From contig NZ_JAGYJH010000003.1 of NCBI RefSeq assembly GCF_018402285.1, positions 558,001 through 622,000 of the forward strand: 64,000 nt of DNA. The letters run 5' to 3'. The stretch is from Hyphomonas sp. (GTDB lineage: Bacteria > Pseudomonadota > Alphaproteobacteria > Caulobacterales > Hyphomonadaceae). Shown one piece after another: positions 4,101-63,917 of the stretch (position 1 is its first letter; each line of letters opens with the position of its first letter). The notes beneath the pieces are model-generated. The model ran no database searches, was not told the DNA's origin, and saw only the letters and a list, made by a program, of their open reading frames with translations. The position numbers and the translations under genes are program-made.

Positions 4101-5933
4101 ATGGCCGATTCCAGCCCAACCATCGTGGACGATCGGCGCACAGCCCTGCCCGAAGGCGGGGAAGCAATCGGCCGTCCACGGGGGCGCAGCCTGAAGCCGC
4201 TGGCCCTGCTCTGGCCCTATGCACGCCGCCACTGGATCACGGTGACAGTTGCGCTGGTCTTCCTGCTGGCTGCAGCGGCCCTGAGCCTTGCCATCCCGAT
4301 GCTGCTTGGTCGGGCGGCCGATGCCGGCCAGCGGGCAGGGGCTGATCCGGCGCTGCTCAAGGCGTTGATCGACCAGGCCTTCCTCTGGGTCTTTGCGGCC
4401 GCGGTGGGTTCGGGCGTTCTGGGCGCCATCCGCTTCTATTTCGTTTCGCGCTTTGGCGAGCGGATTGCCGCGGACCTTCGCCGTGATCTTTATGCTCATC
4501 TGCTGCGCCTTTCCCCAGCCTATCACGCCAAGATGCGGTCGGGCGAAGCGGTTTCGCGGCTGACGGCGGACATTACGCTGCTGGAGACGTTCCTTGGCTC
4601 GTCGGCCTCGCTGGCGGCGCGCACCTTGATGACGACGACCGGGGCGCTGGCCTTGATGCTGGCGGTCAACTGGCAGCTGGGGCTGACACTGCTCGCGATG
4701 CTGCCGGTGGCGATCCTGCCGATCATGATCATCGGGCGGACAATCCGGAAGATGTCTAACGAGGCCCAGTCACGCCTGGCGGACGCGGGCGCAGAAGCGG
4801 CCGAGACGCTCGACTCGATCGAACTCGTACAGGCCTATGGCCGCGAAGGCGGCCAGCTCTCAACCTTCCAGCGGGCGATCGAGGCGACCTTTGCCGCCGC
4901 CATGCGTCGCACGGGTGCGCGCGCGATCATGATCGTGCTGGTGTCGGTACTCCTTTTCGGCGGCTTTACCGGGGTGCTCTGGATGGGCGCGCGGGCCGTG
5001 GCGAGCGGGGAGATGAGTTTTGGCGACCTGGCGACGATGGTGATGTATGCCGCTTTTGCAGGCTCGGGCCTTGGCATGCTGGCGGAAGTCTATGGCGAAG
5101 TGATGCGGGCGGCCGGCGCGGCGGACCGGGCGGCGGAAGTCCTCCGCGCGGTGCCGGAAATTTCGGCGCCTTCCAGCCCAAAGGCGATGCCTGAAAAAGG
5201 GCAGGGCGCGCTCAGCTTTGACAAGGTCACGTTCCGGTATGGTGAAGGCTCTGCGTCTGCGCTGGAGGAGTTCTCCCTCACTGTGAAGCCTGGAGAATTC
5301 GTGGCGCTCGTTGGCCCAAGCGGTGCGGGAAAAACGACGGTTTTCCGGCTGGCGCTTCGCCTGTTTGATCCGCAAACGGGTGAAATAAAGCTCGACGGGG
5401 TCTCTTCGACCGAGGCCGATCCGCGCGACTGGCGGCGCTGCTTTGCCTACGCGCCACAGGAGTCGGCGTTGTTTACAGGCACGGCGGCCGACAACATCCG
5501 GTTTGGCGACGAAGGGGCGGATAATGCTCTGCTGGAGCAGGCGGCCCGGATGGCTGAGGCGATGGGCTTTCTGGACGAGAAGGAAGGCCTTGCGACCGAG
5601 CTTGGCCAGAAGGGGCGCAGCCTTTCAGGCGGCCAGCGCCAGCGGATTGCGCTGGCCCGCGCGCTGGTGCGCAATGCGCCGGTGCTGCTGCTGGACGAGG
5701 CGACCTCGGCGCTCGATTCCGAAAGTGAAGCGGCTGTGCGCCGGGCGATCGAAAATGCGGCCACCGGCCGCACGACGCTGGTGATTGCCCACCGCCTCTC
5801 CACCGTGCGCCGGGCCGACCGCATCCTCGTGATGGACCATGGCCGCATCGTCGAAGAAGGCACGCATGACAGCCTGGTGACCAAAGGCGGGCTTTATGCG
5901 CGCCTGGCAGAACTTCAGTTCACGGAGCGCTAA
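4101..5933 (+). CDS. ABC exporter, fused permease-ATPase (MsbA/ABCB type)
   Basis: A half-transporter of 610 residues. Residues about 35-330 form six membrane helices of a type I exporter domain (ALLWPYARRHW..., RIAADLRRDLYAHLLRLSPAYH coupling region). The C-terminal ATPase shows Walker A GPSGAGKTT (about residue 405), signature LSGGQRQR (about 508), Walker B LLLDEATSALD and the switch His in AHRLST. It would work as a homodimer exporting a lipid or drug-like substrate from the inner leaflet; substrate is not evident. The start at 4101 is preferred over an in-frame ATG at 4032 because a GGGAG element lies upstream and the family homology begins here. Its stop overlaps a convergent small gene. 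Confidence 0.88.
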   Translation: MADSSPTIVDDRRTALPEGGEAIGRPRGRSLKPLALLWPYARRHWITVTVALVFLLAAAALSLAIPMLLGRAADAGQRAGADPALLKALIDQAFLWVFAAAVGSGVLGAIRFYFVSRFGERIAADLRRDLYAHLLRLSPAYHAKMRSGEAVSRLTADITLLETFLGSSASLAARTLMTTTGALALMLAVNWQLGLTLLAMLPVAILPIMIIGRTIRKMSNEAQSRLADAGAEAAETLDSIELVQAYGREGGQLSTFQRAIEATFAAAMRRTGARAIMIVLVSVLLFGGFTGVLWMGARAVASGEMSFGDLATMVMYAAFAGSGLGMLAEVYGEVMRAAGAADRAAEVLRAVPEISAPSSPKAMPEKGQGALSFDKVTFRYGEGSASALEEFSLTVKPGEFVALVGPSGAGKTTVFRLALRLFDPQTGEIKLDGVSSTEADPRDWRRCFAYAPQESALFTGTAADNIRFGDEGADNALLEQAARMAEAMGFLDEKEGLATELGQKGRSLSGGQRQRIALARALVRNAPVLLLDEATSALDSESEAAVRRAIENAATGRTTLVIAHRLSTVRRADRILVMDHGRIVEEGTHDSLVTKGGLYARLAELQFTER

Positions 5934-6106
5934 GGCGTCAGGCCTTCAGACTTTTTCCGGTCCCGCTTGATGGCGCCATCAAGCGAGAAGGAGAAAGCCA
6001 GCGACAAGATCAGCGGCACCCAGATCGGGAGGGTTCCAAGGCCGGGCGCCTCCAGCGCCGCAGCCAGATGATCATCCACGCACCACCATAAAAGCCAGAG
6101 CCACAT
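5930..6106 (-). CDS. Small membrane protein, 58 residues, unknown
   Basis: This short gene begins with MWLWLLWWCVDD and contains a second hydrophobic stretch (TLPIWVPLILSLAFSFSL) followed by a very basic, charged tail (IKRDRKKSEG). It therefore looks like a two-segment inner-membrane protein. An excellent ribosome binding site, AAAGGAGG, sits five bases upstream of the ATG at 6106, which is the main reason to call it real and to reject longer in-frame starts. Its stop codon overlaps the stop region of the convergent ABC exporter by four bases. No family is recognised and no function is proposed. Confidence 0.65.
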   Translation of the reverse strand: MWLWLLWWCVDDHLAAALEAPGLGTLPIWVPLILSLAFSFSLDGAIKRDRKKSEGLTP

Positions 6107-6199
6107 ATGAGCCTCCTTTGAGTTTGAGGGAGTGAGTTTAATCTGCGGGGGAGCGGAGGGATATGGGGGTGATTGCGATGGTTTGCCCTTAAGCAGCAC

Positions 6200-6262
6200 C
6201 CCTTTCCTCCCCTGCGAAACGGGGGAGGTGGCAGACGGCGTCAACCAGCTGACGGAGGGGGG
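6200..6262. repeat. Intergenic palindromic repeat (GACGGCGTC type)
   Basis: A hairpin CCTCCCC / GGGGGAGG (6206-6212 with 6221-6228) is followed by GCAGACGGCGTC and CTGACGGAGGG. This composite resembles a short repeat I know from intergenic regions of many alphaproteobacterial genomes. Copy number in this genome cannot be tested here. Confidence 0.5.
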
Positions 6263-6282
6263 GCTTGGGCGTTGATTCCTGC

Positions 6283-6690
6283 TCAGGCCTGCGGCCTTGC
6301 TTTTTCGTCGAGCCGGCAGAGGAGCGCGTCGGTCCACGGCGCGAGACGTTTCAGGATGCTGGCGGGAACGGGGAAGTCCTTCAGCTTAGAGCGGGCATGA
6401 CGGCGCAGGAGGCGCGCGAGGCGCGGAGCGTGTTTTTTCCTGATGGTTGAGGACGAGGGCGAGACGCCGGGCGGCTTCCATCATCAGGGCCCATTGGACG
6501 AAGGGGGTATCCAAGCCGTTGCTGTTTGAGGCGCGCTTGAGGGTGTCCATGAGTTCGGTGAGGCGGAAGAGCGTGTCGCGGCGACCCTGTCGAACTTGTG
6601 GGGGACCACGCCGCGCAGGAAGACGCGCAGCGCACCGAGGAAGGCGGCGATGCGGGTCCAGAGTTCCGGGCGGGGCGCGGTGATGTCCAT
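6283..6690 (-). pseudogene. Frameshifted remnant of an unrecognised gene
   Basis: Reading down from an ATG at 6690 gives MDITAPRPELWTRIAAFLGA and about twenty more residues. After HKFDRV the sense continues one frame over (DTLFRLTELMDTLKRASNSN, then FVQWALMMEAARRLALVLNH). After a second shift it continues a third time (RRHARSKLKDFPVPASILKR...) to a TGA at 6283-6285. Each segment has protein-like composition and they join into one plausible protein of about 135 residues. At least two single-base changes break it. I do not recognise the family. Sequencing error is possible, but two breaks in 400 bases beside several repeats favour true decay. Confidence 0.5.
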
Positions 6691-6818
6691 GCGCTGAAGA
6701 TGGGGCGTGGTTGAGTGGGGAGGATAAGGTGCCTTAAGAATTTTCGTCCGCCTTCCCGGTTTTGCCGCAGGCGAAGACCGGGAGCCAGGGAGGGCTTAGT
6801 ACTGCTTGGCTTTCTGGG

Positions 6819-6849
6819 TCCCGGATATTTGCTCTCGCAAATTCCGGGA
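6819..6849. repeat. Palindromic repeat, CCCGGA...TCCGGG hairpin
   Basis: The arms CCCGGATATTTGC (6820-6832) and GCAAATTCCGGG (6837-6848) pair around a tctc loop with one bulge. It is followed by ATGACACG. The form matches a common dispersed intergenic hairpin of alphaproteobacteria. Confidence 0.55.
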
Positions 6850-6942
6850 TGACACGTTTAGGGGGTGTGCAGAGGTAGGATAGGGGCGCGGTTGTCCACG
6901 CTGTAGCCGCCCTCACTTCCCATCTCTGCGCGATGGGCTCCT

Positions 6943-6961
6943 CCTCTCCCAGAGGGAGAGG
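6943..6961. repeat. CCTCTCCC / GGGAGAGG hairpin repeat
   Basis: An eight-base perfect stem with a three-base loop lies just downstream of the monooxygenase stop. There is no T tract on either side, so it is called a repeat and not a terminator, although it could act as a transcript-end hairpin. Confidence 0.45.
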
Positions 6962-6995
6962 GGTTCAGCGTTGCGTTTGGATGAAGCGCAGCGGA

Positions 6996-8495
6996 TTACT
7001 CGGCGGCTTGCAGGGCAGGTTTTGCGGCGGCCTTCGTGGATGGGATGTGGAACTGCATGACGCCGTCTTCGATGGGCAGCTCGCGCAGGTTTTTCCGGTC
7101 GGTGAAATAGCTCTGGTGGAGCTTCCAGGGGGGCTCTGTATGCTGGCGGGGGAACTGGTCCATCACGCGCTGGAAATAGCCCGAGGAGAAATCGACGAAG
7201 GGTTCGGTCTCGTTCGGGAAGGCGGCGAGATAGGGCATGGCAGAGGTTGCGCCTTTCTCGTCCATCAGGTTGATCAGACGGCTGACATATTCGCTCGTAA
7301 GGTCGGCTTTCAGCGTCCAGGAGGCGTTGGTGTAGCCGAAGGTGACCGCGAGGTTTGGCACGTTCGAGAGCATCACGCCTTTATAGTTCAGCAGGTGGCC
7401 CGGATCGACCTTCGCCCCGTCGAGCGAGACGGAGACACCGTTCATGAATACGAGGTTAAGGCCGGTGGCGGTGACGATGATGTCGGCTTCCAGTTCCTTG
7501 CCGGATTTCAGCAGGATGCCTTTTTCGGTGAATCGGTCGATATGGTCGGTCTCGACGCTGGCCTTGCCTGACTTCAGGGAGTTGAACAGATCAGAGTCCG
7601 GCACAAGGCAGAGGCGCTGTTCCCACGGATTGTAGGAGGGGGTGAAGTGTTTCTCCACGTCATAATCCGGGCCGAGCTGCTCGCGCACCATGCCGAGCAG
7701 GCGCTCGCGCGCCTTGGCTGGGTTCTTGCGTGTCTGGCGGAAGAAGAACTGCTGGAAGGCAACGTTCCGCCAGCGGATGAGGTTATAGGCCCACTGATCG
7801 GGCAGAACCTTACGCAGGAAATTGGCAAAGCCGTCCACCGACGGGCGCGAGACCACATAGGTGGGCGAGCGTTGCAGCATGGTGACATGGCCGGCCTTGT
7901 CCGCCATCGAGGGTACCAGCGTCATGGCGGTGGCGCCAGAGCCGATTACAACGACCTTCTTGCCGGCATAATCGAGATCTTCCGGCCATTTCTGGGGATG
8001 AAGGATCTGTCCACGGAAGGAATCCTCACCCGGAAAGTCCGGACGGTAGCCTTTGTCATAGCTGTAATAGCCCCCGCACATGAAGAGGAAGCGGCAGGTG
8101 GTTTTCTCCTGCGCGCCGGTGACCGTGTTCTCGCTCGTGACGGTCCAGGCCTGGTCGGCGCCCGACCAGTTGGCGGCGACGATCTTTGTGTCGAAGGAGA
8201 TGTGCTTGCGGACGCCGTATTCGTTGGCGGTGTCGTTGACATATTTACGGATGGAGGGGCCGTCGGCGATGGCCTTGGCGTCCGTCCAGGGTTTGAAATT
8301 GTAGCCCAGCGTGTGCATGTCCGAATCCGAGCGGATGCCGGGATAGCGGAAGAGATCCCATGTGCCGCCGATGGCGCTGCGCGCTTCATAGATGCGGTAG
8401 CGTTTGGACGGGCAATGCTTGCCGAGATGGACGGCGGCGCCAATGCCCGAAAGGCCGGCGCCGATGATGAGGATGTCTGTGTCGAGCTGGGTCAT
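6996..8495 (-). CDS. EthA-like Baeyer-Villiger flavin monooxygenase
   Basis: A 499-residue FAD/NADPH enzyme that inserts oxygen next to a ketone to give an ester, or oxidises sulphur compounds. The FAD Rossmann motif GAGLSG is at residues 12-17, the type I Baeyer-Villiger fingerprint FxGxxxHxxxWP is present as FRGQILHPQKWP (160-171), and the NADPH motif GSGATA is at 185-190. Stretches such as GGTWDLFRYPGIRSDSDM, YNPWEQRLCLVP and TATGLNL closely resemble mycobacterial EthA as I remember it. Length also fits that subgroup (about 490). A perfect 22-bp palindrome lies 35 bases upstream of the start. No regulator gene is next to it. The natural substrate is unknown. Confidence 0.9.
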   Translation of the reverse strand: MTQLDTDILIIGAGLSGIGAAVHLGKHCPSKRYRIYEARSAIGGTWDLFRYPGIRSDSDMHTLGYNFKPWTDAKAIADGPSIRKYVNDTANEYGVRKHISFDTKIVAANWSGADQAWTVTSENTVTGAQEKTTCRFLFMCGGYYSYDKGYRPDFPGEDSFRGQILHPQKWPEDLDYAGKKVVVIGSGATAMTLVPSMADKAGHVTMLQRSPTYVVSRPSVDGFANFLRKVLPDQWAYNLIRWRNVAFQQFFFRQTRKNPAKARERLLGMVREQLGPDYDVEKHFTPSYNPWEQRLCLVPDSDLFNSLKSGKASVETDHIDRFTEKGILLKSGKELEADIIVTATGLNLVFMNGVSVSLDGAKVDPGHLLNYKGVMLSNVPNLAVTFGYTNASWTLKADLTSEYVSRLINLMDEKGATSAMPYLAAFPNETEPFVDFSSGYFQRVMDQFPRQHTEPPWKLHQSYFTDRKNLRELPIEDGVMQFHIPSTKAAAKPALQAAE

Positions 8496-35973: not shown

Positions 35974-36624
35974 ATGTTGTTTTCCCGCCGTAATCTCAGC
36001 CTCGCTGCTGGCATGGCCGCCGCCGTCGCTCTCACGGCCGGCGCGCTCATCGCCTCCACAGCGGAAGCTGCGCCCGCTCCGGCAGCGATTGGCGCAAACG
36101 CCCCGGCCTTCACTGGCACCACGTCAAATGGGGAGACGGTTTCCCTGGCAGACTTTGCAGGCAAGACGGTCATCCTGGAATGGACCAATGATGGCTGTCC
36201 TTTCGTGAAGAAGCATTACGCCGACCCGCCGTCGAACATGCAGTCCCTGCAGAAATCAGCGACTTCGGACGATATCGTCTGGCTGTCGGTGATTTCGTCC
36301 CGTCCGGGTTCGCAGGGTCACGTCACCCCGGCGAAGGCTAATGAGCTGACGACGACGCGCGGCGCGGCGCCTTCGCACGTGATCCTGGACGAAAGCGGCG
36401 ACATCGGCCGCCTCTTCGGCGCCAAGACCACGCCTCACATGTACATCGTCACGCCGGAAGGAAAGCTCGTCTATGACGGCGCAATTGACTCCATCTCGTC
36501 GGCTCGGGTCGATGACATCGCCAAGGCCGATAACTATGTGACGGCCGCGCTGGCCGATCTCGATGCGGGCAAGCCAGTGGCGACCGCCACGTCCAAACCC
36601 TATGGCTGCGCCGTCAAATACTGA
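35974..36624 (+). CDS. Exported redoxin (thioredoxin/AhpC-TSA family)
   Basis: A 216-residue protein with a signal peptide ending at about residue 30 (STAEAAPAPA). The thioredoxin-like domain shows FTGTTSNGETVSLADFAGKT, then WTNDGCPFVKKHYAD with a single active-site cysteine, and the cis-Pro loop KTTPHMYIV. The invariant C-terminus KPYGCAVKY of this peroxiredoxin-like subfamily is present and supplies a second cysteine. It should act in the periplasm and be reduced by the DsbD-like protein encoded 53 bases upstream. GGAG lies seven bases before the ATG at 35974; the TTG at 35953 is less likely. Confidence 0.88.
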   Translation: MLFSRRNLSLAAGMAAAVALTAGALIASTAEAAPAPAAIGANAPAFTGTTSNGETVSLADFAGKTVILEWTNDGCPFVKKHYADPPSNMQSLQKSATSDDIVWLSVISSRPGSQGHVTPAKANELTTTRGAAPSHVILDESGDIGRLFGAKTTPHMYIVTPEGKLVYDGAIDSISSARVDDIAKADNYVTAALADLDAGKPVATATSKPYGCAVKY

Positions 36625-57247: not shown

Positions 57248-57847
57248 CTAATCAAGACAGATCAACTGATCGGTTGACGGATCGATGTCGAGGTTCACGC
57301 AATCGTCCAGGTCGGGCTGAGGGCTGGATGGCGGCAGGGTATTGCCGGACCCGTTGTCTGGAGATTGCCGACCTTCAGCTGGGAGCAGAAAATAGTCATA
57401 TTTGGGGATGCTCGCTACGCTGACGCTGATCCGGCCATCCGGCAATTGGGTCATGGTCGAGGCTCCGAGCAGAGGCAGGTCCTGGCCAGTAAACGTATTT
57501 GGACCGGTCTGTCGAATATCCCTGATTATTACCATATTCGGTCGGATCTTCAACGTGAGTGCATGGGTCCAGGGATCCAGCGCATAGGCCCGGCCTTTTT
57601 CTATCCGGATCGTTTTCCCCAAAGTCGAGATTTTCCAATCTCCATCGATTGCAAGCGGCTCGGTTTCAGGCACTTGTGTTGAATAGGGCAGGAAGGCGTC
57701 CATTTGCGGAATTCCGGCCGCTGCGGCGAATGCATCTCCCATCGTTCCAGCCGCAAGCGCCTCGGTTCCGGCGCACCCAGACAAGATAAGCGCGGCTGCT
57801 CCAGACAGGGGCGCAGCATAGAATTTTCCCATTGATTTAAGTCGCAT
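57248..57847 (-). CDS. Lipoprotein of unknown function, 199 residues
   Basis: The signal peptide MRLKSMGKFYAAPLSGAAAL ends in lipobox LILSGC. The mature part contains AIDGDWKISTLGKTIRIEKG, WTHALTLKIRPNMVIIRDIR and GASTMTQLPDGRISVSVASI, suggesting a small beta-rich domain of about 90 residues, then a serine/proline-rich linker and an acidic end with two cysteines (DDCVNLD...LICLD). AGGAGG lies seven bases upstream of ATG 57847. It is divergent from the 665-residue exported protein, whose C-terminal repeats have a similar WxG-beta pattern. Two copies of an 18-bp palindrome lie between them. Function is unknown. Confidence 0.7.
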   Translation of the reverse strand: MRLKSMGKFYAAPLSGAAALILSGCAGTEALAAGTMGDAFAAAAGIPQMDAFLPYSTQVPETEPLAIDGDWKISTLGKTIRIEKGRAYALDPWTHALTLKIRPNMVIIRDIRQTGPNTFTGQDLPLLGASTMTQLPDGRISVSVASIPKYDYFLLPAEGRQSPDNGSGNTLPPSSPQPDLDDCVNLDIDPSTDQLICLD

Positions 57848-57918
57848 ATTGAATCCTCCTTTGATCCAGGACCTCTCATTTGTCTGGGGAGTCGTAACGG
57901 AAAAGCGCTGCACGCCTA

Positions 57919-57936
57919 ATGGGTAGCGTTACCCAA
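57919..57936. promoter_or_regulatory. 18-bp palindrome site 1 (GGGT-N6-ACCC)
   Basis: ATGGGTAGCGTTACCCAA. It is the exact reverse complement of site 2. It lies 72 bases upstream of the lipoprotein start. Site centres 1 and 2 are 63 bases apart, six helical turns. Confidence 0.75.
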
Positions 57937-57981
57937 AAAAGGGGACTCACGGGGATCACACGTCTCTGACCGCTCGCGGAT

Positions 57982-57999
57982 TTGGGTAACGCTACCCAT
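57982..57999. promoter_or_regulatory. 18-bp palindrome site 2 (GGGT-N6-ACCC)
   Basis: TTGGGTAACGCTACCCAT, exact reverse complement of site 1. It lies 89 bases upstream of the 665-residue protein gene. Confidence 0.75.
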
Positions 58000-58087
58000 A
58001 AGCCCGGTCGCCCGCGTGCGTTAGATTACCGGCTAAGCTGAGCAGTCCTTTGACTGCCCGGATCGTCGGAAAGGACGGGGAAAAATC

Positions 58088-60085
58088 ATGGCCGGAATCA
58101 TTCATTCAATCCTTCGAACGAGTATGCTGTGCATGCTTTCAATCTCCTTCATGCTCTCGTTTCCATCGACGGCATTCCAAGCCCATGCAGACGATGTCGA
58201 AGACGAGATAGAGACGCTTGCAAGAGAGAAACTGATGTCGCTGGGCCCCGAGCTCTTCGAAGCATTCGTGGTCGGACTCGATGCGGCGAATGATGAATCC
58301 CTGCAATCCGGTATCAAGAATGAAAGCGCCCAAAACCTGCCCGGTTGTGTGGCCCCGCTTTCGGATTTCCAGACCCGGACCTTGAGTCTGTCCGGCGGTG
58401 GGACGCTACTCGTGGTCGGCGCAGATTTTGAGGGCGGCGTGGCTTTTAAGTGCGGGGAAGGTGTTGATCTTTTCGACCGCCGTCAGACCAAGTTTTTCGG
58501 GGCGGGCGGCTGGGCCGTGCGAGTTGGTGCTGCGGTAGACGCGGCGTTTAACATCGGGCACTGGCAAGTCCCGCACAATAATCTGAGAGGTCGATCCGTC
58601 GGTTGGGAGTTCGAGTTGGCCGATCTCCTGAAGTCTCTACGCGCTGTGGCGAAGTATATGGATTGGATCGAAAAAGAGAACAGCGGGTCGGAGCGGTTCC
58701 CGTTTTCGATCGGGGTCACCTTCTGGTGGGAGAATGAGGCCTCAAGCAGCTGGGCCAAACCGATCCGGGGTGAGTATCAGGGCTTTGTGATTTCATTCGT
58801 GAAGGACATGGGTTCCGAACTCGGAGCTGGATTAGTGACGTCTCGAACGGTCCAGTTCTGCGATAATGATTCAGAGTGCACACTTGGGCTTTGGAGCGAT
58901 GAGTCTGGAGACAATCAAGTCCTCATTCGCAAGCATGTTTTCGACCCTGATGAGAACAATCTGAACATCAAGCTCGGAGATCATTATATCGTCGCTGACA
59001 TCGATAGTGACTATCTGGACCTGGACACATCAGAAAAGACCGTACGCGGCCAACCCCTGGACTGGAGCGACTATCGCGAACGCCGGGATGGTCGGACCCT
59101 GTATAGGATTTGCTTCCGGGACAATTATACGAAAATGCATCTCAGCCTGGGTGGCGGCATCTGCAACAATTCGCAAAAGGTGACGCTGACCATGCAACGC
59201 CCGCTGGAGGAAAGCGATGTTGTTGGCCGGGATTATCGCGGATACTGGAATGGCGCGCAGGGGGGCACAACGCGTTACATCCGGATTGTCGAACGTGACG
59301 CGAACCACACCCTGACTCTGCAGGAGTTCGGGTCCAGCGCCCAGCGTGTATTCACAAAAATCATCGGGCCGACCTATACCGAGAGGAGTACGGCAGCGAT
59401 GCTTACTGTGCGCAATGATGTCCTTCGGCTCCAGGAGGGGAGAAGCACGCTCGAGTTTACCCGAAATTCGGTAGAGGATGATGAGCGCATGCTCGGCTCG
59501 GATTTTGCCCTCGCGGACTCGATCAATGGCGAATACTGGAATGCAATTGTGAATGGCGAGACGGTCTATGACAAAGTCGTCTCCCGCTCGGCAGGCCGAA
59601 TTGAACTCTCGCGCGTCGGTGAAAATGAGAGCAGACAGTATATAAAAACAAGCCCCTTCGGAAACCGTTTTCTGGGCACGGACGGGGTCTTGGTTGTCGA
59701 TGGCGCCCGAATGGAACTGAATGGAGCTGTGTTCAGACGAAACTCGATTGACGAGGATGCTCGACTGGCAGAGCTGCTGATGCAATCGCGCCCCTGGCCT
59801 GGTATCGGGGCCGTGGTTGCGGCTGAAGATGAAATCATTGACGTCGTGGGCGCTTGGACCTGGACCTCGGACGACACCCTGAAGACAAACATCTTTGTTA
59901 GCCAGACAGACTCGGAGATCCGGCTGCGCGATCGTCGGAACCCGCTTGCACTGCACACATACCAAAAGATCGCTCCGAATATCTATCAGCACAGTTCGGG
60001 CAGCACGTTCGATTTTCGTTCCGAGACGATCCTGGTCTGGAAAAACAGTGGGGGCGATCAGAGCATCATCATGCGTCGTGAATAG
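58088..60085 (+). CDS. Exported 665-residue protein with three C-terminal repeats, unknown
   Basis: A signal peptide (cut near AFQAHADD, residue 35) sends this protein out of the cytoplasm. Residues 36-80 are an acidic helical segment. Residues 95-260 form a glycine- and tryptophan-rich beta region (LSLSGGGTLLVVGADFEGGV, then VGVTFWWENEASS... to FVKDMGSELGAG) with cysteines 87, 122, 258 and 264. Residues 378-460, 478-551 and 586-664 are three diverged repeats, each opening with a GxYW/GAW motif and closing with a hydrophobic strand before F(T)RRN/MRRE. The layout suggests a binding or pore-type surface protein. No family is recognised. It precedes the two-component genes on the same strand and shares the palindromes. 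Confidence 0.75.
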   Translation: MAGIIHSILRTSMLCMLSISFMLSFPSTAFQAHADDVEDEIETLAREKLMSLGPELFEAFVVGLDAANDESLQSGIKNESAQNLPGCVAPLSDFQTRTLSLSGGGTLLVVGADFEGGVAFKCGEGVDLFDRRQTKFFGAGGWAVRVGAAVDAAFNIGHWQVPHNNLRGRSVGWEFELADLLKSLRAVAKYMDWIEKENSGSERFPFSIGVTFWWENEASSSWAKPIRGEYQGFVISFVKDMGSELGAGLVTSRTVQFCDNDSECTLGLWSDESGDNQVLIRKHVFDPDENNLNIKLGDHYIVADIDSDYLDLDTSEKTVRGQPLDWSDYRERRDGRTLYRICFRDNYTKMHLSLGGGICNNSQKVTLTMQRPLEESDVVGRDYRGYWNGAQGGTTRYIRIVERDANHTLTLQEFGSSAQRVFTKIIGPTYTERSTAAMLTVRNDVLRLQEGRSTLEFTRNSVEDDERMLGSDFALADSINGEYWNAIVNGETVYDKVVSRSAGRIELSRVGENESRQYIKTSPFGNRFLGTDGVLVVDGARMELNGAVFRRNSIDEDARLAELLMQSRPWPGIGAVVAAEDEIIDVVGAWTWTSDDTLKTNIFVSQTDSEIRLRDRRNPLALHTYQKIAPNIYQHSSGSTFDFRSETILVWKNSGGDQSIIMRRE

Positions 60086-60112
60086 TGCAAATCCGGCTTT
60101 CGCATTGACGAT

Positions 60113-60146
60113 CTCCTCGACTGGTTCTTAAGAACGAGTCGGGGAG
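60113..60146 (+). promoter_or_regulatory. 34-base palindrome enclosing the response-regulator ribosome site
   Basis: Arms CTCCTCGACTGGTTCTT (60113-60129) and AAGAACGAGTCGGGGAG (60130-60146) pair with one mismatch and one GU. The right arm ends in GGGGAG, the ribosome site of the TTG at 60156. As RNA it would hide that site; as DNA it could be a protein-binding site. No T tract follows. Confidence 0.55.
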
Positions 60147-60155
60147 ACTTGAATA

Positions 60156-60800
60156 TTGAGTACAACAACGCCTTCTCGCACAGTGATCGTGGCTGATGAT
60201 CATGCGGTAGCCCGTACGGGGACAAAGTCCGTTCTCTCAGAGATCGCCGGTGTTTCAATTGTGGCGGAGGTTGCCGACGGTCTCAGTGCGATTGCGGCGG
60301 TCAAGACGCATCTACCCGACCTCCTTGTGCTGGACGCCGCGATGCCGCATGCAAAAGGCATAGAGGTCTTCGCCGATGCGCGCCGCTGGAGTCCGGGTAC
60401 GGCAATTGTCCTGCTTACGGGCTTCACTTCTGCGGGGTTTCTGGCAAACTGGCTGGACGCCGAAGTTGACGGGATATTGCTGAAATCCTGCGAGCCGAGC
60501 GAGATGCGAACCTGTTTCGAGACGGTGCTGGCGGGAGGGCGCTTTATCGCCGAAGAGGTGGGAGACATTCTCGAACGCACAACGCCTGCGGATGCCTTCA
60601 CCAATCGCGAGCGTGAGGTTCTGTCTCTACTGGCCATGGGGCATCAAAGCGTAAACATCGCAGCGCGCCTCAATATCAGTTCGCGCACCGTGGAAAAGCA
60701 CAGAGCAAGCCTGATGGCGAAGGTCGGGGTCAATTCGATCGCGCAGCTCATCGCGTATGCGTTGCGTGAAGGGTTGCTGGATGAGCATCGGCAAGTCTAG
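60156..60800 (+). CDS. NarL/LuxR-type response regulator
   Basis: A 214-residue regulator. The receiver domain has the acidic pair D14-D15 (VADDHA), the phosphate-accepting Asp 60 (LVLDAAMP), Thr 88 (LLTGF) and Lys 110 (ILLKS), so it is complete. The C-terminal LuxR-type HTH (about residues 148-205) shows FTNREREVLSLLAMGHQSVN and RLNISSRTVEKHRASLMAKV. The start is a TTG nine bases after GGGGAG; that ribosome site is locked in a long palindrome. The histidine kinase gene follows after 80 bases. It is the obvious candidate to bind the GGGT-N6-ACCC palindromes, which is inferred and not shown. Confidence 0.9.
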   Translation: MSTTTPSRTVIVADDHAVARTGTKSVLSEIAGVSIVAEVADGLSAIAAVKTHLPDLLVLDAAMPHAKGIEVFADARRWSPGTAIVLLTGFTSAGFLANWLDAEVDGILLKSCEPSEMRTCFETVLAGGRFIAEEVGDILERTTPADAFTNREREVLSLLAMGHQSVNIAARLNISSRTVEKHRASLMAKVGVNSIAQLIAYALREGLLDEHRQV

Positions 60801-60828
60801 GCACCTCACTCTTTGCCCGGGAATGCAA

Positions 60829-60846
60829 ATGGGTAGTCGCACCCAT
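60829..60846. promoter_or_regulatory. 18-bp palindrome site 3 (GGGT-N6-ACCC)
   Basis: ATGGGTAGTCGCACCCAT. It has the same size and outer arms as sites 1 and 2 and lies 35 bases upstream of the histidine kinase start, after the response-regulator stop. Confidence 0.6.
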
Positions 60847-60880
60847 GGTCCGGGCGACGGGTTAGGGGCAGATTCTTTGC

Positions 60881-62915
60881 ATGATTGATAAGCTGCGTTC
60901 CTGCATCGACTCTGTGCCGGCTGCCATAAGGTCCGCGCTATTGCTGGCGGTGATGATCGCAACGTCGATAGGTCTATGCCTCGTCTTCGCGACCCCGCAG
61001 GACGATCCCGCGGAGCGGGGAGAGGTGATCGAACTTCCTGTCGCGGATTATTCAAGCGCATTCTTTGGCCTGTATGCCGAAACCCTGGCCGAAACGGATG
61101 GGCCAATGACGCTCGAAGACGTCATTGCGAGCGACGGTTGGGAGACCATGGGCACGCGATATATGAGTTTCGGATCTGTCTCGGATACCATCTGGATTCG
61201 GGCCAGGGTTCGAAACATTTCCGATGCACCCATCACGATCCGGTTCGATACGCGCCGCGTCGCATTCGATCATATGGACATGTATCTGACCGATCCTGAC
61301 GGAAGCGGTTCGACACAATTCCTGGATTATAGCTATGCAGCGCCGTTCTCGGATCGGCCCGTCAACCATCGGTTCCTGGTCGCAGATATCGAGCTGGCGC
61401 CCAATGAAACACAGATGGCCTATGTGCGTTTCCGCGGCCTGTTCAACACAATCCTGCCGCTCCGGCTGGCCTCACCTGAAGCCTTTCAGATGGCCGAGAA
61501 ACATGAGGTGTTCTGGTCGGCTCAATTCTACGGCACGTTCACTGCCATCACATTCCTGACCTTGCTCGCCGCGCCTCTTATTGGCTGGCGCACAAGTCTC
61601 AGTTTCGGCTTCTTTCTGATCACCAGCGCCGCCACATGTCTTGCGGTGGAGGGTTATATTGATCAACACCTCATCCCCGACAAGAACGAGATCACTGCCC
61701 GCCTGACCGACAGCCTGTATTTCCTCACAGCCGCAGCCATTCTGATCTTGAGCCGCACCGTGTTCGATCTGCAGGCCAAGGCGCGGTTGCTGGACTTCGG
61801 TGCTTGGTTGGACATCTTACACCATTCTCCTGATTGGAACCTTCCACTTCCTGTTTGGCATTGCGCCGAGAACCGTGTTCATACCCATTTTTCTATTCTT
61901 GCGTGGCACATCGCTGATCTTGCATGCTGTGGTCGGGATTTGGGCGGTCTGGACACGGGAAAAAGGGGGGACAGCCTTCGCGGCCAGTTCGATCCTCGTC
62001 GCGACGGCGTCGATCGCGCTGGTGGTCGATCCGACGTTTGGCTATCCCTATGGCGGCTATCCTTTCATCATGCGCTGGCTTGTAACGGTCGAAGCGATGG
62101 CGCTCGCGATCGCTATTGTTCAGAGTGTTTTGGGCCTCAGAAAAGAGCGTGACCTCGCCATCAAGGCGGATCTCGTCGCAACCCGCGAACGCCTTCGATT
62201 GTCGCTCGCGCTTGCAGACAGCCAAAGGGCTTACTCTCGCGCGCAGCGCGCAGCAGGACAATATATGCGCCGCTTGCAAACCGTGAGTCATGACATTTTG
62301 CAGCCACTTCAGTCTCTGAAATCTACGCTGCGGGAGAAGCCCTCAATAACCGACGAGCAGGCTGAGAGACTCGAGGAAGCGTTCGATTACCTGGAGGCGC
62401 TGGCGCGCCAGAATCTGCAGTCCCATCATGACCATACGCGCGTGGCGGCGCAGGCTCAATCGAGCGGATCGGACAACATCCCGATTGCCACGGTGATCAG
62501 CACTGTTGCGACCATGTTCGCGAACGACGCGGCGGCGAAAGGCGTTGAATTGTTGATTCACAGCGCTGACGAGACAATTTCTGTCCCGCACCCCGTTCTA
62601 CTTATGCGGGCTATCAGCAATCTGGTATCCAATAGTTTGCAACATGCCACGGGCAACAGGATAGACATCTCTTTTGACTGCGACCAAACAGGCACCTGGG
62701 TGTCGGTCAGGGATCAGGGGCCTGGCATGTCCGCCGACGCGCTTCGGGATATGCTGGATTTCGGAAATCGCGGCGCTGTATCGCACGGATCCGGCTTTGG
62801 CCTGGCAATCGTGCAAGACGCAGCGCGAGAAATGGGAGCAGAGCTTGAGATACACTCCACGGAGAGCGGCGGTACAACGGCGAAACTCTCATTCATCAAC
62901 TCGCCAAACCGTTGA
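60881..62915 (+). pseudogene. 7TMR-DISM histidine kinase, broken by a one-base frameshift
   Basis: From ATG 60881 the first frame gives a signal/anchor, a periplasmic 7TMR-DISMED2-like domain (WIRARVRNISDAPITIRFDT, HRFLVADIELAPNETQMAYV) and the first of seven helices. Near 61799-61801 the sense moves one frame over and continues LGWTSYTILLIGTFHFLFGI with the remaining helices, then a HisKA-like region with the phosphoryl His in VSHDILQPLQ, the N box AISNLVSNSLQHATGN, and the G boxes DQGPGMSAD and GSGFGLAIVQ. Removing one G at TTCGG (about 61798-61800) would give a single protein of about 677 residues. A sequence error is quite possible; if real, the sensor is split from the kinase. It pairs with the response regulator. 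Confidence 0.8.
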
Positions 62916-63370: not shown

Positions 63371-63622
63371 ATGACCACCGTCCGAAAGACCATTACCCTC
63401 ACCGATACGCAGAATGACTGGATCAAGGCGCAGATCGACAGCGGCGCTTACACGAACGACAGCGAAGTGTTGCGCGACCTGATCCGCAAGGCGCAGCAGG
63501 AAACTTCCGAGATCGAGGCTATTCGCGCGGCGCTCATCGAAGGCGAGAGAAGCGGCCTCAGCGCGCGCGGGCCCGAAGAGATTCGCGCAGCGGTGAAGAA
63601 GCGGAAGCCCCTGAATGGTTGA
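63371..63622 (+). CDS. ParD-type antitoxin
   Basis: An 83-residue ribbon-helix-helix protein. The N-terminus VRKTITLTDTQNDWIKAQID is the DNA-binding strand and first helix, and YTNDSEVLRDLIRKAQQE is the second helix with the usual SEVLRDLIR sequence. The C-terminal part (SEIEAIRAALIEGERSGLSA) wraps the toxin in ParD complexes. It should bind its own promoter and neutralise the toxin encoded next. Its stop overlaps the toxin start by eight bases, the usual type II layout. Confidence 0.92.
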   Translation: MTTVRKTITLTDTQNDWIKAQIDSGAYTNDSEVLRDLIRKAQQETSEIEAIRAALIEGERSGLSARGPEEIRAAVKKRKPLNG

Positions 63623-63917
63623 TGGCCGCTATCACTTAACCCAGGCGGCCGATGCGGACCTCGAACGCTTGTACGAGTGGGGCATTGATCGCTTCGGCGT
63701 GAATGCTGCGGACGAATATTATGATGGGCTGACTGCACGCCTGGCGCAGATCGCGGGTACTCCGCAGCGATGGCAGGAGGTCGATCATATCCGCGCTGGC
63801 TATCGCCGCTCGGTGTATGTCGCGCATTCTGTCTATTTCCGGGTCGAGGCCCGTGGCGTCTTGATCGTGCGCGTCCTCGGGCGCGAAAATCCGCAAACCG
63901 GTCTTCCGAATGACTAA
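63615..63917 (+). CDS. ParE-type toxin
   Basis: A 100-residue RelE/ParE-fold toxin. YHLTQAADADLERLYEWGID and GLTARLAQIAGTPQRWQEVD are the two-helix hairpin; IRAGYRRSVYVAHSVYFRVE and VLIVRVLGRENPQT form the sheet with the R...Y..H...Y pattern of ParE proteins. These toxins poison DNA gyrase in studied cases. The family features are intact, so the pair is likely functional. It overlaps the antitoxin gene. It is the last complete gene in the window. Confidence 0.92.
   Translation: MVDGRYHLTQAADADLERLYEWGIDRFGVNAADEYYDGLTARLAQIAGTPQRWQEVDHIRAGYRRSVYVAHSVYFRVEARGVLIVRVLGRENPQTGLPND

What the first reader, a model, noticed from the sequence alone, without database searches (positions are those of the whole stretch)
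57248..62915. Candidate undescribed signalling module held together by one operator
A lipoprotein, a 665-residue exported repeat protein, a LuxR-type response regulator and a 7TMR-DISM histidine kinase are linked by three copies of an 18-bp GGGT-N6-ACCC palindrome. Two of the copies are exact reverse complements of each other, in the divergent promoter. The kinase type senses external ligands, so the module may couple a surface protein to its own expression.
Basis: partly seen in the sequence, partly recalled or inferred. Interest (0 to 1): 0.75.

Follow-up and report, generated by a model that had tools for sequence, protein, structure and literature searches.

The report
Self-wired sensor module with swappable cargo
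A bacterium carries a sensor and a DNA-binding regulator beside two exported proteins, with one short palindrome before the lipoprotein, the exported protein and the sensor; relatives keep this wiring while the exported protein changes, and the palindrome's letters change together with one amino acid of the regulator.

Summary
The observation largely holds and grows stronger with relatives. TGGGT-N6-ACCCA occurs three times in the 3.04-Mb genome, all within 3 kb here, before the lipoprotein (LIPO), the exported protein (EXP) and the histidine kinase (HK). In nine Hyphomonadaceae genomes with LIPO (this one included) such a palindrome precedes LIPO (9 of 9), EXP (9 of 9) and, where present, HK (8 of 8). 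Twenty-five further loci, found by regulator (RR) sequence alone, have 14 exact sites within 3 kb of the RR and none in the 168 kb beyond; 13 of the 25 have none. The general operator is ATGGGK-N6-MCCCAT. Among 30 loci with sites, Arg177 RRs go with GGGT-containing sites (13 of 13) and Lys177 RRs with GGGG (17 of 17); no other RR column separates them, and the residue changed at least three times. Best reading: an undescribed, locally wired 7TMR-DISM/NarL-type module that activates itself and an exported protein swapped between lineages (a MACPF fusion in Erythrobacteraceae). Corrections: the HK gene is split by a frame change at 61,795-61,824, and LIPO starts at 57,847. Binding, activation, ligand and function are inferred.

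The parts
57248..57847 (-). LIPO: 199-aa lipoprotein, lipobox LSG|C, one confident beta-rich barrel-like domain (strands within residues 69-156)
   Evidence: start and lipobox by eye; AlphaFold2 mean pLDDT 80.3, ten-residue blocks 51-160 average 89-98; 9 of 105 family genomes (own included) plus one weak match; no Pfam or NCBIfam match
57920..57935 (.). operator 1, TGGGTAGCGTTACCCA, centre about 80 bp before the LIPO ATG
57983..57998 (.). operator 2, exact reverse complement of operator 1, centres 63 bp apart, about 97 bp before the EXP ATG
58088..60085 (+). EXP: 665-aa exported protein (signal peptide by eye); residues about 37-351 shared with relatives
   Evidence: no Pfam or NCBIfam match and no useful PDB-sequence match
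60156..60800 (+). RR: NarL/FixJ-type response regulator, receiver plus GerE HTH; recognition helix ISSRTVEKHRASLM with Arg177; no operator directly before it, so probably co-transcribed with EXP (inferred)
60830..60845 (.). operator 3, TGGGTAGTCGCACCCA, between RR and HK, centre about 43 bp before the HK ATG
60881..61798 (+). HK, first part (frame 2): 7TMR-DISMED2 domain and start of the 7TM region
61824..62915 (+). HK, second part (frame 3): rest of 7TM, SHDILQPLQ box (by eye), HATPase_c; the frame changes between 61795 and 61824

Best explanation
The four genes form one locally wired two-component module. The 7TMR-DISM kinase reads a signal outside the inner membrane and phosphorylates the adjacent NarL/FixJ-type regulator. 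The regulator, as a dimer, binds ATGGGK-N6-MCCCAT (here TGGGT-N6-ACCCA) at each module promoter. The site lies where a -35 element would be, so binding most likely activates LIPO, EXP-RR and HK: a positive feedback switch whose output is a lipocalin-like lipoprotein and an exported protein. Shown by sequence: the sites, their confinement to the module, their conservation with this RR clade, and co-variation of half-site letter 4 with RR residue 177. Inferred: RR binding, activation, feedback, kinase input. Least certain is purpose; my guess is regulated display or release of a surface or secreted effector whose identity is swapped between lineages.
For: Own genome: 3 of 3 exact TGGGT-N6-ACCCA in the module; 9 exact TGGGK-N6-MCCCA, the 4 in the two modules outside reading frames, the other 5 inside. 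Family: 22 sites of at least 10 of 12 letters in the eight other LIPO-bearing modules (shuffle rate 0.49 per 16 kb) plus the window's 3. RR-only sample of 25 loci: 14 exact sites within 3 kb (132 kb), 0 in 168 kb beyond, 0.78 by shuffling. With the fourth base left free, 52 labelled loci: 59 sites in 367 kb near the RR, 7 in 457 kb beyond. Residue 177: R 13 of 13 GGGT class, K 17 of 17 GGGG class, the only one of 204 columns without error. Half-site letters: R loci T42 G16 C2; K loci G54 T3 A1. Tree: at least 3 changes of Arg forced by well-supported branches; K-type G243, sister of the window's RR, has GGGG sites. TANNNT starting 23-24 bp after the site in 14 of 40 promoters, shuffles 3.2, largest of 1000 12: operator centre near -43.
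Against: No binding or expression data. The kinase frame is broken in this assembly. G017 keeps EXP, LIPO and sites without an adjacent pair. In the RR-only sample 13 of 25 loci have no exact site: seven with N, H or Y at 177, and six with Lys, four of these (G127, G378, G262, G394) with an otherwise different helix. Of 30 loci labelled K, 19 have a site, but L107's lies inside another reading frame and G262's is mixed; of the 11 without, seven (L108-L111, L113-L115) have a one-letter-off site, L105 a site further away, and G500, G338, G394 none. G127 and G378, counted apart because the script did not read their helix, carry Lys by eye and have none: 19 of 32. Rows are related, so the Fisher p of 1.5e-14 overstates independence. 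The -10 signal is in 14 of 40 promoters only, several near copies.
Confidence: 0.78

Rival explanations
1. Same module, but the RR represses: bound over the -35 position it blocks polymerase until a signal releases it.
For: The site occupies the -35 region, where activators or repressors can act.
Against: A -10-like element at fixed spacing with the operator in place of the -35 is typical of class II activators (general knowledge); direction was not tested.
Confidence: 0.17
2. The palindrome belongs to another regulator (for example a LacI-like protein) and the two-component pair is only a neighbour.
For: Sites 1 and 2 have the CG centre of such operators (recalled); no binding data exist.
Against: The centre is not conserved while the arms are; sites occur beside this RR in genomes chosen by RR alone, and the operator letter tracks an RR recognition-helix residue.
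Confidence: 0.05
3. Chance palindromes or structural repeats (terminators, REP-like elements).
For: The strict pattern is common at background: 67 of 105 family genomes have one or more, 0-6 each. Short T-runs follow some sites in one direction (for example L081 7263, L082 8194, L137 2164).
Against: All three genomic copies lie within 3 kb, before start codons, with the same placement in nine genomes.
Confidence: 0.01
4. The Arg/Lys-operator match is shared ancestry, not contact.
For: R-type rows fall mainly in two clades, and K/R is a conservative change; three changes may be one gain and two losses.
Against: At least three changes are forced by supported branches, with a K-type RR beside the window's R-type RR and with GGGG sites; none of the other 203 RR columns tested separates the classes without error, two have one error.
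Confidence: 0.2
5. In this strain the module is decaying: a true frameshift has silenced the kinase.
For: Frame change at 61795-61824; LIPO is rare in the genus (1 strong match among 42 same-genus genomes, own included).
Against: The other three reading frames and the three operators look intact; a single indel in an assembly is a common artefact.
Confidence: 0.35

Closest known systems
NarL/FixJ-family response regulators (FixJ, EsrB, SsrB, VraR, DosR/DevR)
   Same: Receiver plus GerE HTH; inverted-repeat operator. FixJ has Arg and EsrB/SsrB have Lys at the aligned recognition-helix position. DosR Lys179, Lys182 and Asn183 make base contacts (PMC4082495, one passage read); that DosR Lys179 is the position of residue 177 is recalled, not aligned here.
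   Different: Operator ATGGGK-N6-MCCCAT; none of the 25 NCBIfam matches shown (of 83) reaches its cutoff; a local set of exact sites in this genome.
7TMR-DISM sensor proteins (RgsP, SagS, RetS, LadS type)
   Same: DISMED2 extracellular domain followed by a 7TM region.
   Different: Paired with an adjacent NarL-type RR and exported cargo. The 14 papers that hold '7TMR-DISM' were seen as listing and abstract starts only; none names such a module there.
Bacterial lipocalin/calycin-like lipoproteins
   Same: LIPO models as a confident beta-rich domain; best PDB match a Bacteroides lipocalin-family protein (4gzv).
   Different: Weak match: best E 0.034, TM at most 0.45 in the 50 rows shown of 521; no sequence relative in Pfam, NCBIfam or the PDB.
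MACPF proteins
   Same: In Pontixanthobacter (L106) and Erythrobacter (L112) the LIPO domain is fused to MACPF (PF01823, E 3.2e-9 and 1.9e-9) next to the same kind of RR/HK pair and GGGG operators.
   Different: The window's EXP has no MACPF match.

Membership tests
NarL/FixJ response regulator | Response_reg and GerE domains above Pfam cutoffs | tested here: met
   72 bits vs 30.2 and 61.8 vs 23.5
NarL/FixJ response regulator | Conserved receiver acidic pair, phospho-Asp and Lys | tested here: met
   D14, D15, D60 and K110 invariant in the 13 aligned RRs
NarL/FixJ response regulator | Phosphorylation-dependent DNA binding | not testable with these tools
   needs protein
7TMR-DISM histidine kinase | 7TMR-DISM extracellular domain | tested here: met
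   7TMR-DISMED2 E 8.7e-20
7TMR-DISM histidine kinase | 7TM domain above cutoff | tested here: inconclusive
   24.4 bits vs cutoff 29; the region is cut by the frame change
7TMR-DISM histidine kinase | Sensor and kinase core in one reading frame | tested here: not met
   HATPase_c E 3.9e-18 but in another frame in this assembly; both parts in one frame in G019, G022, G023, G025, G082 and G084
Quorum-sensing LuxR protein | Autoinducer-binding domain | tested here: not met
   receiver domain instead
Lipocalin superfamily | Lipocalin barrel by fold comparison | tested here: inconclusive
   best Foldseek E 0.034
Bacterial lipoprotein | Lipobox cysteine after a signal peptide | tested here: inconclusive
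   ILSG|C read by eye only; not present in all relatives
MACPF effector | MACPF domain in EXP | tested here: not met
   no Pfam match for the window EXP

The most novel reading that the evidence does not exclude
A widespread but undescribed alphaproteobacterial signalling chassis (7TMR-DISM kinase, NarL-type regulator, lipocalin-like partner) keeps its operator wiring while swapping exported effectors, including a pore-former-like MACPF fusion. Its operator code was rewritten at least three times by one Arg/Lys exchange in the recognition helix, which may insulate paralogous modules living in one genome (here GGGT on contig C3, GGGG on C5).
Probability: 0.5. Interest if true: 0.78.

Novelty: new variant of a known kind. 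Interest (0 to 1): 0.62.

Why it matters
It is a compact natural experiment in how two-component regulators stay insulated. One residue, the only one of 204 RR columns that sorts 30 loci by operator class, goes with one operator letter through repeated evolutionary changes, and two such modules share one genome. It also points to a conserved lipoprotein family without a Pfam or NCBIfam model and to a set of exported proteins, some with MACPF domains, beside one conserved sensor, so signal and effector become testable together in a cultured strain such as Henriciella mobilis M65.

Tried and rejected
EXP structure: AlphaFold2 with 6 rows gave mean pLDDT 45.9, too poor, so no fold search was run. 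LIPO vs PDB: weak lipocalin-like matches only. PDB sequence search with the EXP profile: one match at E 0.6, no use; with the LIPO profile: none. Homology of LIPO to the EXP C-terminal units: hhalign probability 10, not claimed. Motif hits in G019 (C33:216009) and G012 (C1:2227677) have no module gene beside them and were not pursued. PedR2 paper PMC6115532: the hit was in primers (one passage seen). The first motif definition (TGGGTA-N4-TACCCA) missed GGGG sites; replaced by ATGGGK-N6-MCCCAT.

Rows dropped or grouped before counts; 30 RR loci; class T if at least one GGGT half-site and T at least half of G (L116, 7 G and 1 T, fell in G). Left out: L107-L111 and L113-L115, L121 (RR frame unsure; its exact site is GGGG), G500, G338, G262, G394, and the nine loci grouped as 'other', two of which (G127, G378) carry Lys by eye. 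L105 got a wider span (5.5 kb); 46 rows; left out G378, L108, L109, L111, L113, L115 and the truncated RRs of G050 and G255:C239; L121 was cut to its last 240 residues; 40 of the 49 rows; left out five RR-facing directions, both G025 rows, L112 7977 and L086 8473; 25 loci fetched because not used before; the other RR hits were known already.
Full report
What is there. The window lies at G000:C3:558001-622000 of a 3.04-Mb, 6-contig, 90.9%-complete genome. Its family is inferred to be Hyphomonadaceae, because contigs of eight same-family handles have the lengths of named Hyphomonas, Henriciella, Ponticaulis and Hyphomonadaceae records. The module holds a lipoprotein (LIPO, 57248-57847, minus), an exported protein (EXP, 58088-60085), a NarL/FixJ-type regulator (RR, 60156-60800) and a 7TMR-DISM kinase (HK, 60881-62915). 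LIPO and EXP match no Pfam or NCBIfam family.

Corrections to the finding. The HK is in two frames. Two relatives' full-length kinases match frame 2 up to 61795-61798 and frame 3 from 61824-61845, at 45-53% identity on both sides. LIPO probably starts at 57847 (by eye). EXP's 'repeats' are weak.

The operator is not chance. TGGGT-N6-ACCCA occurs three times in the genome, all within 3 kb. With the fourth base relaxed (TGGGK-N6-MCCCA) there are nine exact sites, reversed control two: three here, one beside a paralogous RR/HK pair on contig C5, and five inside reading frames. The strict pattern alone is not rare: 67 of 105 family genomes have one or more, 0-6 each. Concentration and placement are what count.

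The wiring is conserved. LIPO has strong matches in 9 of 105 family genomes (own included) and one weak, stop-containing match in G043. In all nine an operator precedes LIPO and one precedes EXP, and in the eight with a kinase alongside one precedes it, some sites serving divergent genes; in G082 the LIPO site matches 11 of 12 letters. G084 has the RR/HK pair with two sites but no LIPO. The window's EXP aligns at 24-30% over parts of the EXPs of G010, G017, G023 and G024 and, at E<=1e-3, not to those of G019, G022, G025 and G082, which are tied in through the others; LIPO stays 39-62% identical to the window's. The relatives' EXPs carry Cys-rich N-terminal repeats that the window's lacks. In another family of the order, LIPO follows a 12-of-12 operator in G255 and G298 (L137, L138), and an EXP relative follows one in G279 (L162). 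In Pontixanthobacter and Erythrobacter the LIPO domain is fused to MACPF beside an RR/HK pair of this kind; in L117 and L118 it is fused to a caspase-like peptidase without the pair in the stretch held.

A test by RR alone. RR-clade members were collected by RR sequence from the class (3 of 385 genomes at E<=1e-50, own included), one other family (3 of 17) and the order (29 of 398). In 25 loci not used before, 12 have at least one exact TGGGK-N6-MCCCA within 3 kb: 14 sites in 132 kb, none in 168 kb further out, 0.78 expected by shuffling. The 13 without are seven RRs with N, H or Y at position 177, two Lys RRs (G500, G338) and four Lys RRs with an otherwise different helix (G127, G378, G262, G394).

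A one-residue code. One search left the fourth base free and took 52 loci: 59 sites in 367 kb within 3.5 kb of the RR, 7 in 457 kb beyond. Near Arg177 RRs (13 of 13 loci with sites, 30 sites) the half-site letters are T42 G16 C2, and 29 of 30 sites have a GGGT half. Near the 30 loci labelled Lys (19 with sites, 29 sites) they are G54 T3 A1, and 2 of 29 sites have a GGGT half, one of them inside another reading frame. The nine loci grouped as 'other' have none; two of these, G127 and G378, carry Lys by eye, so the fair Lys count is 19 of 32. Many R-type sites are mixed, one GGGT and one GGGG half. Among the 30 loci, residue 177 is the only one of 204 columns that separates the classes without error; two columns have one error each. 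On a maximum-likelihood tree of 46 RRs the Arg label needs at least three changes that supported branches force, and G243 (Lys, GGGG sites) is the sister of the window's RR (Arg, GGGT sites). The window's genome carries both types: C3 (Arg, GGGT) and C5 (Lys, GGGG). A DosR review passage says Lys179, Lys182 and Asn183 touch bases (PMC4082495); that Lys179 is the aligned position is recalled, not computed.

Mechanism. A TANNNT element starts 23-24 bp after the site in 14 of 40 promoters (3.2 by shuffling, largest of 1000 shuffles 12), so the operator centre would be near -43, over the -35 region, which fits activation. The likely circuit is kinase to RR to operators before LIPO, EXP-RR and HK, with positive feedback. 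Targets look local: no exact relaxed-pattern site outside reading frames exists elsewhere in this genome; imperfect sites and the missing 9% were not excluded.

Against this reading. There are no binding data. G017 keeps sites, EXP and LIPO with no adjacent pair. EXP-domain relatives in G088, G092 and G098 have neither sites nor pair in the stretches held, and G050 has a partial RR and no site. Of the 11 loci labelled Lys without a site, seven have a one-letter-off site and L105 a more distant one; three have none. The rows are related by descent. LIPO is rare in the own genus (1 of 42), so the module is accessory there.

Known or new. The parts are known kinds; LIPO, EXP and the operator code were not found described in eight paper searches, of which two returned no paper and the others were seen as listings and abstract starts, often only the top of a longer list. 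I call it a new variant of a known kind.

Noticed in passing
L106:9920-12568, L112:9923-12592 (Pontixanthobacter, Erythrobacter): LIPO domain fused to a MACPF domain next to an RR/HK pair with GGGG operators; a second LIPO-domain gene lies just before it.
   Followed up: partly
L117:8954-10351, L118:8861-10384: LIPO domain fused behind a caspase-like peptidase (PF00656) in Sphingomonadales records, without the RR/HK pair in the stretch held.
   Followed up: no
G000:C5 (L086: HK 4993-7008 -, RR 7011-7655 +): Paralogous RR/HK pair in the same genome, Lys-type, with an exact GGGG site before an outer-membrane-barrel-like gene and a one-letter-off site before a Cys-rich lipoprotein gene (by eye).
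   Followed up: partly
window 63371-63917: Looks by eye like a ParD/ParE-type toxin-antitoxin pair just after the module; not searched.
   Followed up: no
window 36315-36328: Fourth GGGT-N6-ACCC match (GGGTCACGTCACCC), different inner sequence; surroundings not examined.
   Followed up: no
L085:503-4315 (Ponticaulis): A trypsin-domain protein and an LCCL-domain protein lie beside the module's lipoprotein and Cys-rich protein.
   Followed up: no
G019:C33:216009 and G012:C1:2227677: Operator-like sites (TGGGTATTGCTACCCA, TGGGTAGCTCCACCCA) away from any module gene; distant targets or chance.
   Followed up: no
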